Shown: positions 5,478 through 12,465, numbered from the stretch's first letter. The stretch: 64,000 bases of DNA from Elusimicrobiaceae bacterium (GCA_017546175.1 JAFYXM010000002.1:1-64000); one strand, 5' to 3'. Numbers and translations: made by a program. Notes: a model not told the origin generated them from the sequence alone.

Positions 5478-6623
5478 TTAGAAATTTCTTAAACTTCTCA
5501 AAGATTGGTTTTTTGTGTAATGGATTTCTTCGGGTTCTCTTTGGAATGCTTCTTGGATTTCTTGTTGTTGTTCTTCTTCTAAGCAAGCCATTTCATGGAT
5601 AATGTCCGAAATTTCAATACACAAAGTACGCGTTTCTTCATTTTGTGCCAAAGCGGCCAATTCTTCAGGTGTAGCATACACAAATAAATTAATATTATTT
5701 TGCAGACGTCTGGTGTAATCTTGCGTTTGGGCCTCAGCCTCATAAGCATTTCCCAGCAGGAAGAATAAAAGCGTTACACCGGCAATGCCTCTCATGTTTT
5801 TTAGCACTTTTTTAATAAACTGAGCGCTTCTTACGCTGAGATGTTGAGGATAAGAATGTATGTAGTCCAAGACCGTTTTTTCATAAAATTGAAAATAGCT
5901 CTTAGAGGCCGTAGGAGAGTTAAGCTGCAAACGTTGTAAAAATTTAACTTTAAACGTTTCGTCCATGCCCTCGGTTAAAAGGGCGATTTCTCTGCTGGTT
6001 AATGCTTGATTTTTAGAGAGTTTGGTGGCAATTTCTGCCATTTCCGGTTTAAAGGCAAATCTCTTATCTTCAAAAGCTTTCCAAAAAGCCAATTCTTCCT
6101 GTAGGGCAGCATTTTCCGCTTCCAAAGCATCTCTCATGATGCTATTTTGTACATTTTGGTTTTCCAAGCGGCTTACTTTGTTAAGTTGTCCCTCATACAG
6201 CTGTTTCCATTGAGTAGATTCATTGTCTATTCTGATTACTTCAGATTTTAAGCCCGTTACTCTTTGTTGAGTTTGAGCTAATTCTTTTTGAAATTTATTT
6301 TTCTGCTCTGTTAAGGTCTTGATATCAGCTTGCAGGCGTTGTGTCATGGTTTGCATGGTGCTGGCATGTTGTTTTTGTTGGGCTTTTAATTGACCTTTGA
6401 AATACAAGTGTTGCACAACCAGTAACGCCCCACCCACACCGGCGACGGATAAAAAGATTTTTCCTTCTTTGCTGATCCAAGGAGCTTTTTGTATATCTTC
6501 TTGTGCGCGCTGTTGATACTCGGCTAAAGTGTTTGGCTCTTTTGGGGTTTGCTTGGCATGGGCCCAAAGAGTATGAGGTAGCAGTAACGATAAAGAAAGA
6601 AATACGGCAAAAAATTTATGCAT
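5478..6623 (-). CDS. Exported coiled-coil protein, paralogue A of a three-member family
   Basis: No known family was recognised. The 381-residue protein has a signal peptide (1 to about 23, ending ...LWAHA) and a glycine-rich hydrophobic segment at about 52-70. A long Gln/Glu/Lys coiled coil runs from about 75 to 175, followed by a helical domain. A second hydrophobic segment near 277-295 ends in EAEAQ, which itself resembles a signal-peptidase site. A C-terminal segment contains NLFVYATPEELAALA. This C-terminal block matches the products of 10169-11365 (NLFLDASEEDLQKIA) and 11461-12465 (LFLEATREDLALLA). The predicted location is the periplasm or envelope. A shared promoter/operator lies at 6658-6715. 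Confidence 0.85.
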   Translation of the reverse strand: MHKFFAVFLSLSLLLPHTLWAHAKQTPKEPNTLAEYQQRAQEDIQKAPWISKEGKIFLSVAGVGGALLVVQHLYFKGQLKAQQKQHASTMQTMTQRLQADIKTLTEQKNKFQKELAQTQQRVTGLKSEVIRIDNESTQWKQLYEGQLNKVSRLENQNVQNSIMRDALEAENAALQEELAFWKAFEDKRFAFKPEMAEIATKLSKNQALTSREIALLTEGMDETFKVKFLQRLQLNSPTASKSYFQFYEKTVLDYIHSYPQHLSVRSAQFIKKVLKNMRGIAGVTLLFFLLGNAYEAEAQTQDYTRRLQNNINLFVYATPEELAALAQNEETRTLCIEISDIIHEMACLEEEQQQEIQEAFQREPEEIHYTKNQSLRSLRNF

Positions 6624-6657
6624 AAAAACCTCTAAAAATAAGATAGACTTCTCTATT

Positions 6658-6715
6658 ATTCTAGGAAATCAAAGACATATAAAAAAGAGACTTTAGACCT
6701 AAGCAAAGTTGGGTC
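6658..6715 (-). promoter_or_regulatory. Promoter and palindromic operator of paralogue A
   Basis: On the minus strand, a -10 TAGAAT (6658-6663) is followed upstream by a 17-bp spacer and a weak T-rich -35 (6681-6686). Directly upstream is TAGGTCTAAAGTCTC (6687-6701), then the palindrome GACCTAA-N6-TTGGGTC (6696-6715). The same arrangement, including the 21-nt distance to CCTAGAATAA, occurs before paralogue B. The regulator is unknown. Confidence 0.6.
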
Positions 6716-6730
6716 CAAAGTCCTAGGATA

Positions 6731-10168: not shown

Positions 10169-11365
10169 TTAATAAGAAGCGCCGGATCTAAGACCTTGGT
10201 ACGTATTTTGACGTACGGCATTTCCTTCTTCTTGAGCCAAACGGGCAATTTCTTGAATTTCTTCGTTAGGCAATGCCTTCATCATGTGAATAGCGTAGGC
10301 GCCTTGGACACAAACTTCAACCGCTTGAGGAATATTAGCAATTTTCTGTAAATCTTCTTCAGAAGCATCCAAGAATAAATTAAAGTTGGTATTAATGCGG
10401 TTGGTCACTAACTGATTAGCCGTTTGAGCTTGCGCCGTATGAGCACTGACACCCAAAAGAGCTAAAAACCCGATTGCAAACATATTCTTTTTGGTGGCTA
10501 CGTGTTGGCTAAGCGTCAGCAAGCGTTGGAAAAGACTCGCTTCTGCCTGAGGTAAAAATCTGCGGGCGCCAAAGTTCAAAATGTGGGAAGCTCCTTGGAT
10601 GCTGTTACCGTTGTGAAGTACGCCAAGGGCATCATCTAAGTATTTCAAGAAAAGTTCCTGTTGCTCTTTGGTAGCCGTTTTGAACCACGGCTCATTGGGT
10701 ATAGCTGTTCTTAACAGATTGCGTTCTGCCTTCGGTATGGTTTCGTCAAATAATTTGGTATATTTTTCCATTTGCGTATAGATGTCAAAATCAACGTGGC
10801 TAAAACGGGCGGTCAAATCTTGGTAAAGCTCAATAGATGTTTTTTGCTCTGCAATGATGGCTTGCAGTTCTGCTTCTCTTTTTTCCAGTTGCAAAAGGGC
10901 AGCTTCTCTTTTGGCTTTTTGAGTAGCGGCAGATTTTTCCAAACCGTTCTTTTTGATTGTGATGATGCGTAGTTCTTCTTGCAGGGCGGCTAATTTTTTC
11001 TCTCCCTGAGCAAGAGTCTGATTAAATTCGGCTTGCAGTTTGGCTACGTCTTCTGCATGGCGGGTAGCTGCACGTTTGGCTGTTTCAAATGATTCTTCGG
11101 CAAACTTACGTTTGAGCTCTTCTGTCGCTACTTTGGATCTATATTTATGGATGGCCGTTGTAACGAGGAAAGTCAAAACGGCTGTACCGCCGATGCTTAA
11201 AAACGTTTTTTGATTGTCAGTCAAGCCTAGTTCTTGAATGTCTTTATTAGCTTGCGTTTGAATGTCTTTCAGATTCTCTGTAGAGATTGTTTGCGCAAAC
11301 AAGACATTCTGCCCCAACAAAGAAAAAACAAGGGTAAGTGCTAATATTTTTTGAAGTAGTTTCAT
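10169..11365 (-). CDS. Exported coiled-coil protein, paralogue B
   Basis: This 398-residue protein has the same plan as paralogue A. There is a signal peptide (1 to about 24, ending LFAQ), a hydrophobic segment at about 50-68 after TDNQKTFLSIGG, and a coiled coil at about 70-190 rich in Glu/Lys/Ala. A helical middle domain is followed by a second hydrophobic segment near 297-312 ending HTAQAQT, again like a signal-peptidase site. The conserved C-terminal block NLFLDASEEDLQKIA comes next, then an IHMMKALPNEEIQEIA helix that aligns with IHEMACLEEEQQQEI in A. The function is unknown. The start has a GGAG ribosome site, and the promoter/operator at 11402-11460 lies directly against the stop of paralogue C. 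Confidence 0.85.
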   Translation of the reverse strand: MKLLQKILALTLVFSLLGQNVLFAQTISTENLKDIQTQANKDIQELGLTDNQKTFLSIGGTAVLTFLVTTAIHKYRSKVATEELKRKFAEESFETAKRAATRHAEDVAKLQAEFNQTLAQGEKKLAALQEELRIITIKKNGLEKSAATQKAKREAALLQLEKREAELQAIIAEQKTSIELYQDLTARFSHVDFDIYTQMEKYTKLFDETIPKAERNLLRTAIPNEPWFKTATKEQQELFLKYLDDALGVLHNGNSIQGASHILNFGARRFLPQAEASLFQRLLTLSQHVATKKNMFAIGFLALLGVSAHTAQAQTANQLVTNRINTNFNLFLDASEEDLQKIANIPQAVEVCVQGAYAIHMMKALPNEEIQEIARLAQEEGNAVRQNTYQGLRSGASY

Positions 11366-11401
11366 AATTCTCCTATATGCAGCGTGGTATATTCTATACT
11401 T

Positions 11402-11460
11402 ATTCTAGGAAAAGACAAAAGCTGGGACAAGGGCCTTTGGACCTAGAGTGAAACTAGGTC
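11402..11460 (-). promoter_or_regulatory. Promoter and palindromic operator of paralogue B
   Basis: On the minus strand: -10 TAGAAT (11402-11407), a 17-bp spacer and -35 TTGTCC (11425-11430). Next to it lies TAGGTCCAAAGGCCC (11431-11445), then a perfect palindrome GACCTAG-AGTGAAA-CTAGGTC (11440-11460). The palindrome touches the stop codon of the upstream gene. Confidence 0.65.
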
Positions 11461-12465
11461 TTAATAACCTATGGTATAGCGTAAAGGTTTATTTTGCTGG
11501 CTTTGGCGAGTTTTCTGGTTAACAGATTGGATATAAGCCAACTCTTCATCCGATAAAGATGAAGAAGCCATTTCTTTTAAAGAAAGTACCAATAAATTAG
11601 CATATTCTACAGACTGCGGGTGTTCGGCCAGTAAGGCCAAATCTTCCCTAGTGGCCTCTAAAAAAAGCTCAGGATTGCGTACAAGACGATATAAAGATTG
11701 GTGTTCTGAAGAAAAATCAACCAATTGGTCCACCAATAATAATAGAGCGCCGCCCAATAATAAATGTCTGGCTTGCAAAAAGAGCACTTGCGCCTTTGGA
11801 TATTTGTTAGCCATGTCTGCCAGAAATTTTTGGGCGGCTTCTTTGCCAGATTTATAATTGATGGCAGCCGCTTGGTTGAGGCGTTGGAAAAGCCCCTCAA
11901 TTTCTTCTTGAGAGAGTTTGCGAAAATAGTTAGTGTTTCCGAATCTTTCTTCAATGCGGCGGCTTAAATAGCTTTTCTTGGGTTGTTTGGCTACTTCTAA
12001 TTCTGGAAACAAGCTGTTTTCTTGGGCTTTTTTGGTAGCGCGAAGAGCTTCCTGTGGCTCATCTAACCAGCTTAAATCTTCTTTTTTAGGGGTTGTCGGT
12101 TGAGTGGGGGCCGCTTCTTGCGGAAATAAAGAAAGTTGACTTGGGTCCGCAGCAGCTTTTTTGGCAAACATCTGATGAAATGAATGTTCCGTATGCCAAG
12201 AATGGGAAGAGACGGAAATTTGGTTTAATTCTTGAGTAAGAGCCATTTTCAGTTGAAGGGCCGGTAATTTTTCCATATAAGCCCATAATAAAGTGGCTGA
12301 TATATAAAATAACAAATCACGGCTATGTTCAGATTGGCTGGCATAATGGCGGGCTTGCTTTTGAAGAGAGAACAGCTGTTCTGCAGAAGTATTTTGCCCC
12401 CATACAAAAGCGGAGGGGGAACAGGTATATGCCAGTAGTATTAATAAAGTAAAAAATTTTCTCAT
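11461..12465 (-). CDS. Exported coiled-coil-type protein, paralogue C
   Basis: This is a 334-residue protein starting MRKFFTLLILL with a signal peptide to about residue 24 (FVWGQ). It is the most divergent family member. The coiled coil is replaced by a Pro/Lys-rich middle part (about 115-175), but the helical domain, a hydrophobic segment (LLLGGALLLLVDQL, near 252) and the C-terminal block LFLEATREDLALLA remain. It lacks the AxA site after the second hydrophobic segment. The start at 12465 is favoured over an upstream in-frame TTG because a TACAAT -10 ends 6 bases before it, predicting a leaderless mRNA, and because it gives a clean signal peptide. Confidence 0.8.
   Translation of the reverse strand: MRKFFTLLILLAYTCSPSAFVWGQNTSAEQLFSLQKQARHYASQSEHSRDLLFYISATLLWAYMEKLPALQLKMALTQELNQISVSSHSWHTEHSFHQMFAKKAAADPSQLSLFPQEAAPTQPTTPKKEDLSWLDEPQEALRATKKAQENSLFPELEVAKQPKKSYLSRRIEERFGNTNYFRKLSQEEIEGLFQRLNQAAAINYKSGKEAAQKFLADMANKYPKAQVLFLQARHLLLGGALLLLVDQLVDFSSEHQSLYRLVRNPELFLEATREDLALLAEHPQSVEYANLLVLSLKEMASSSLSDEELAYIQSVNQKTRQSQQNKPLRYTIGY

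What the first reader, a model, noticed from the sequence alone, without database searches (positions are those of the whole stretch)
5478..12465. New family of exported coiled-coil proteins in three local copies
The genes at 5478-6623, 10169-11365 and 11461-12465 share a signal peptide, a hydrophobic segment (or equivalent), a coiled-coil or variable middle, a late hydrophobic helix and a conserved C-terminal block (consensus LF-x-x-AT-x-E-x-LA-x-LA). I recognise no known family. Local duplication with strong middle-part divergence suggests a surface or envelope role under diversifying pressure.
Basis: partly seen in the sequence, partly recalled or inferred. Interest (0 to 1): 0.62.

Follow-up and report, generated by a model that had tools for sequence, protein, structure and literature searches.

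The report
Membrane protein trio under secretome promoter
Three neighbouring genes in a gut bacterium belong to a new, fast-changing family of membrane proteins, and each is preceded by an apparently undescribed DNA control element that, across this bacterial family, almost always marks genes for exported proteins.

Summary
In detail: the three genes are real, at the stated coordinates, and homologous (profile-profile E 7e-14 to 3e-22 between paralogue types). No curated family matches beyond weak coiled-coil hits. The family occurs in 17 of 66 genomes of one gut genus (Candidatus Avelusimicrobium), twice in one related genus, and nowhere else in the sampled phylum. Its core is a gene trio, C-B-A, at one locus between tRNA-Gln and tRNA-Arg; the window keeps B and A, plus a second A nearby.

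Two points change the interpretation. (1) The late hydrophobic helix of types A and C ends in A-x-A|Q, like this genus's ordinary signal peptides. It is probably an internal signal peptide: the coiled coil stays in the cytoplasm and the C-terminal domain is cut off outside (predicted). (2) A conserved promoter element, GRCCYA-N9-TRGGYC-N6-CCCTTG...TAnAAT, precedes all three genes and recurs about 20-50 times per genome. At sites not used to build the motif, 56 of 61 precede a signal-peptide gene, against a 27% background. Its arms vary independently, so it looks like a protein-binding DNA site.

'Diversifying pressure' is not supported (dN/dS about 0.1-0.2). Best reading: a new envelope family within an exported-protein regulon that works like PlcR's.

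The parts
5478..6623 (-). P0001, second type-A paralogue (381 aa): signal peptide, TM1, coiled coil, TM2, C-terminal block
   Evidence: same place beyond the sigma factor and MFS genes in L185
5481..5729 (-). P0001 residues 299-381: C-terminal domain after the predicted A298|Q299 cleavage site
   Evidence: cleavage inferred
6656..6715 (-). promoter element of P0001 (weaker match, arm spacing altered)
   Evidence: 31.7 bits with R1 (which was built with this site); 25 bits with R2
10169..11365 (-). P0002, type A of the trio (398 aa)
   Evidence: AlphaFold2 mean pLDDT 61, helical
10172..10426 (-). P0002 residues 314-398: C-terminal domain after the predicted A313|Q314 cleavage site
   Evidence: A313 and Q314 invariant among type A (cleavage inferred)
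10433..10483 (-). P0002 residues 295-311: TM2, predicted internal signal peptide core
11400..11462 (-). promoter element of P0002, strongest in the window
   Evidence: (51.4 bits)
11461..12465 (-). P0003, type B of the trio (334 aa); proline-rich middle with LF..P and DLSWLD motifs; no A-x-A site after TM2
   Evidence: AlphaFold2 mean pLDDT 55, C-terminal domain about 80
11464..11712 (-). P0003 residues 252-334: C-terminal domain, predicted to stay tethered
12472..12534 (-). promoter element of P0003; start codon a few bases after the -10 box (leaderless)
   Evidence: (39.9 bits)
12776..12849 (-). tRNA-Gln(ttg): upstream boundary of the trio locus in all relatives that have it
9329..9403 (-). 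tRNA-Arg(cct): downstream boundary of the trio locus

Best explanation
The genes encode paralogous inner-membrane proteins of a new envelope family, switched on together with many other exported proteins by one DNA-binding regulator. Shown by sequence: the family, its C-B-A trio at one locus, and a promoter-proximal element that marks exported-protein genes genome-wide. Inferred: (1) a regulator binds the dyad GRCCYA-N9-TRGGYC just upstream of the -35 box and activates transcription; (2) in types A and C the first signal peptide starts export, TM1 stops it and leaves the coiled coil in the cytoplasm, and TM2 restarts export; (3) signal peptidase I cuts after A-x-A and releases a helical domain of about 80 residues into the periplasm; (4) type B lacks the site and keeps the same domain tethered, so A, B and C probably form one envelope complex.
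For: Family and trio. Element before the members and before other genes. Sites outside the motif-building set precede signal-peptide genes in 19 of 19, 20 of 22 and 17 of 20 in a second genus; same rule on the opposite strand 12 of 36 and on other genes of the same genomes 53 of 195. Promoter anatomy (CCCTTG, 17-18 base spacer, TAnAAT, nearby start codon). Arms vary independently, as for a protein-DNA site. A-x-A site after TM2 in 36 of 50 members, AQ in 33, as in the ordinary signal peptides of these genomes.
Against: No regulator is identified and no transcript data exist. Signal peptides were called by a home-made rule that over-predicts. K/R counts around TM1 do not fix its orientation. 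Structure models are low in confidence and no complex was modelled. Not every member has a clear element (several type C genes lack it).
Confidence: 0.6

Rival explanations
1. The whole protein is exported and the hydrophobic helices only anchor it, so the coiled coil is periplasmic or on the surface.
For: N-terminal signal peptides in all members; K/R counts around TM1 are equal on both sides.
Against: TM2 carries basic residues on its N side and ends in A-x-A|Q like a signal peptide; such a site is expected to be cut only if the N side of TM2 is cytoplasmic (established knowledge of signal peptidase I).
Confidence: 0.25
2. The upstream element is an RNA feature (terminator of the upstream gene or leader hairpin) and not a regulator-binding promoter site.
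For: The arms are complementary and could pair; some matches are followed by T-rich stretches.
Against: No covariation between the arms above shuffles (0.140 against 0.147); fixed spacing to a -10 box and start codons sometimes only 5-6 bases after the site; the link is to the downstream gene.
Confidence: 0.08
3. The family is a conflict or surface-variation system whose middle parts diversify under selection by phage, host or competitors.
For: Patchy presence in 17 of 66 congeners; faster evolution than neighbours and exchange of the A gene between lineages (dS 0.27 against 0.57-1.2 in flanking genes).
Against: Gene-wide dN/dS is about 0.1-0.2 where dS could be estimated. No match in PHROGs or phage records. 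No toxin or nuclease domain was found. Site-wise selection was not tested.
Confidence: 0.12

Closest known systems
PlcR box and PlcR regulon of Bacillus cereus (PMC2464732)
   Same: A short DNA box in promoters recurs genome-wide, and most controlled genes encode exported proteins: 45 genes, 28 boxes, 40 exported. Here about 20-50 matches per genome, over 90% before signal-peptide genes.
   Different: Different box sequence and phylum; no regulator, signal or expression data known here; the element here lies directly upstream of the -35 box.
Promoter boxes that mark secreted effectors, such as the hrp box (from general knowledge, not tested)
   Same: A promoter motif predicts proteins that leave the cytoplasm.
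   Different: Those mark substrates of dedicated injection systems; here targets carry ordinary Sec signal peptides and no dedicated secretion route is shown.
Viral polyproteins with internal signal peptides (from general knowledge, a functional analogy only)
   Same: An internal hydrophobic helix restarts export and is cut by signal peptidase.
   Different: These are bacterial genes without viral relatives, and cleavage is only predicted.
Sigma-54 as controller of the bacterial exterior (PMC3162934)
   Same: One transcription system linked to envelope and exported molecules.
   Different: The element has sigma-70-like -35 and -10 boxes, and sigma-54 is reported absent from Elusimicrobium minutum.

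Membership tests
Any curated protein family (Pfam, NCBIfam, PHROGs, PDB) | significant profile or sequence match outside coiled-coil regions | tested here: not met
   Only sub-threshold hits, mainly to coiled coils; the C-terminal domain has no Pfam match in 22 members and no PDB match below E = 0.02
New family (this report) | conserved C-terminal domain after a late hydrophobic helix | tested here: met
Sec-exported membrane proteins | N-terminal signal peptide with basic n-region and A-x-A-type site | tested here: met
   by sequence rule; SignalP was not available
Proteins with an internal cleaved signal peptide | basic flank, hydrophobic core and A-x-A site inside the chain | tested here: met
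   36 of 50 members, types A and C; type B not
Proteins with an internal cleaved signal peptide | actual cleavage | not testable with these tools
   needs protein chemistry
PlcR regulon | presence of the PlcR box and of a PlcR regulator | not tested
   membership is not claimed; only the logic is compared
Cis-regulatory RNA or terminator | compensatory changes between the paired arms | tested here: not met

The most novel reading that the evidence does not exclude
One DNA-binding activator controls the accessory Sec-exported proteome across the Elusimicrobiaceae, perhaps the whole order, in bacteria whose cultured member is reported to lack sigma-54. Under it sits a three-protein envelope complex whose A and C subunits are made as two-signal-peptide polyproteins that release a helical domain into the periplasm.
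Probability: 0.4. Interest if true: 0.72.

Novelty: new variant of a known kind. Interest (0 to 1): 0.58.

Why it matters
Elusimicrobiota live in animal guts and little is known of their gene regulation. A promoter motif that predicts exported proteins with over 90% success makes 'what do these bacteria send out, and when?' directly testable, and gives a ready list of candidate surface and secreted proteins (ankyrin and HEAT repeat proteins; M20, trypsin-like and matrixin-like peptidases; many unknowns). Genome G109 (1,643,562 bp, from memory the size of the cultured Elusimicrobium minutum Pei191) carries both the element and the family, so a cultured organism could be used.

Tried and rejected
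Curated families: none match. Phage origin: no match. Beta-clamp-like motif in P0003 (QLSLF): rejected, the Q is not conserved in type B. The element as an RNA hairpin or terminator: rejected on lack of covariation and on promoter spacing. Positive selection: not supported gene-wide. A C-terminal sorting signal shared by the whole regulon: not seen, although the family itself has a conserved end. Fold search: no usable hit from a low-confidence model. A first protein scan of genome contigs found nothing. One search for a secretion ATPase in outgroups was uninformative. The E. minutum genome paper is not held.

Full report
Check of the observation. Two-sequence BLASTP gives E = 1e-11, 8e-5 and 0.004. 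An HMM from the three C-terminal blocks, iterated over 398 ORFs of related loci, settles on 25 members, all below 1e-17, while the next ORF has E of about 5. Profile-profile comparison of the three paralogue types gives E from 7e-14 to 3e-22 and extends the homology upstream of the C-terminal block.

What the family is. The window's genome has five copies: three in the window and a tandem pair on another contig. A profile search of 66 genomes of the genus finds the family in 17, with 2-7 copies each. A search of 295 genomes across the phylum adds only one genome, of a second genus in the same family, with two copies. Named contigs that carry the family belong to uncultured Elusimicrobiales and to Candidatus Avelusimicrobium excrementipullorum. 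The second-genus genome is a single contig of 1,643,562 bp; from memory that is the size of Elusimicrobium minutum Pei191, so this identification is inference.

The locus. In relatives three types follow each other as C-B-A, between ispE-spoVG-tRNA-Gln(ttg) on one side and a nitroreductase-like gene, tRNA-Arg(cct) and an RpoD-like sigma factor gene on the other (gene names other than the tRNAs are my reading of the translations). The window has B (P0003) and A (P0002) at this place. A further A-type gene (P0001) lies beyond the sigma factor gene and an MFS transporter gene, as also in genome G056 (L185). Seven congeners without the family have other genes, or nothing, after the tRNA-Gln. Types A and C have coiled-coil or helical middles; type B has a proline-rich middle with repeated LF..P and a conserved DLSWLD motif. 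AlphaFold2 models are all-helical and low in confidence (mean pLDDT 61 and 55); only the C-terminal domain of P0003 is fair, and Foldseek finds nothing.

Topology and processing (inferred). Every type has an N-terminal signal peptide and a late hydrophobic helix; the first internal helix is clear in most but weak in P0003. The late helix is preceded by basic residues and, in 36 of 50 members, followed by an A-x-A-type site, with AQ in 33. The ordinary signal peptides of these genomes also end mostly in AQ. The helix in types A and C therefore looks like a second, internal signal peptide. If so, the coiled coil stays in the cytoplasm and a C-terminal domain of about 80 residues is released outside; type B lacks the site and would stay tethered. 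K/R counts around the first helix are uninformative, so this remains a prediction. The extreme C-terminus is also conserved: 45 of 50 end in R, Y, H or F, mostly after A or S. The reason is unknown.

The promoter element. Upstream regions of the members share AAAGRCCYA-N9-TRGGYC-N6-CCCTTGnnn, then 17-18 bases and TAnAAT. This reads as a dyad operator directly upstream of a -35 box, with a -10 box at normal spacing. In roughly one target in ten the start codon follows the site by only 4-10 bases, implying leaderless mRNAs. A sequence-only model finds 19-41 matches at E up to 1 in each of 11 genomes of the genus, most of them before genes outside the family. A first set of 39 such sites, many of which were then used to refine the model, gave 36 signal-peptide genes by an automatic rule and 38 by eye. 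Sites from the rest of the own genome and from genome G050 gave 19 of 19, three further genomes gave 20 of 22, and the second genus gave 17 of 20. Together that is 56 of 61 at sites not used in building the model. With the same rule, 12 of 36 scorable sites score positive on the opposite strand, and 53 of 195 other genes of these genomes do. The rule over-predicts membrane proteins, so the contrast is conservative. A few good sites also precede signal-peptide genes in another family of the order (6 of 11), which hints at a wider distribution. In the window other signal-peptide genes, such as those at 32442-33551 and 15602-16087, are not preceded by the element, so it is not a general feature of exported genes.

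DNA or RNA. The arms of the dyad vary independently: the covariation score is 0.140 against 0.147 in shuffles. This argues for protein recognition of DNA and against an RNA hairpin or terminator. The position upstream of the -35 box suggests activation; the regulator is unknown.

What the regulon contains. Of 65 target proteins most have no Pfam match. Recognised domains include ankyrin repeats (6 proteins), M20 peptidases (5), HEAT repeats (4), trypsin-like (2) and matrixin-like (2) peptidases. Three genomes tested have two secretins each; one sits next to a PilB/GspE-like ATPase and the other in a Tad-like cluster (my reading). No dedicated secretion route is shown.

Evolution. In three of the four genome pairs examined, most family genes are 51-69% identical while flanking genes are about 73-92% identical, but dN/dS is only about 0.1-0.2 where dS could be estimated. 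The A gene of L026/L027 has dS 0.27 against 0.57-1.2 in flanking genes, a sign of recent exchange. This supports fast, mosaic evolution, not positive selection.

Comparison with the known. As a regulon it works like PlcR of Bacillus cereus (28 boxes, 45 genes, 40 exported; PMC2464732), but membership is not claimed. Sigma-54, proposed as a controller of the bacterial exterior, is reported absent from E. minutum (PMC3162934). The literature searches turned up no description of this element or family, but subscription papers, including the E. minutum genome paper, were not available.

Verdict. The better finding is the promoter element that ties it to a genome-wide set of exported proteins. The link between element and exported proteins is strong; the regulator, the cleavage and the complex are predictions.

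Noticed in passing
window 12555-12793: The 3' end of tRNA-Gln plus its terminator-like hairpin (about 49 bases) is present twice, flanking about 140 bases of GC-rich inserted sequence, where relatives carry the type C gene. A similar partial tRNA end is seen in L028.
   Followed up: partly
window 35360-35470 and 48770-48885: Two pilin-like genes share a long T tract upstream (TTGACAAATCG-T(n)-GCTACTATTTTTTCAG) and lack the exported-protein element, so pilins seem to be under separate control.
   Followed up: no
L026 8169-9431 and L027 7329-8588: The type A gene has dS 0.27 while flanking genes have 0.57-1.2, suggesting exchange of this gene between lineages.
   Followed up: partly
C-termini of family members, e.g. 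window 10169-10180 and 11461-11472: 45 of 50 members end in R, Y, H or F, usually after A or S; paralogues of one genome tend to share the last residue. Unexplained.
   Followed up: partly
L137, L138, L139, L145, L148, L149: Good element matches before signal-peptide genes in a different family of the order, suggesting an older origin of the regulon.
   Followed up: partly
G011:C37:24365 (L104): A regulon gene encodes a signal-peptide protein with two similar copies of a domain containing RALYRGM/HMLYRGL; the domain was not identified.
   Followed up: no
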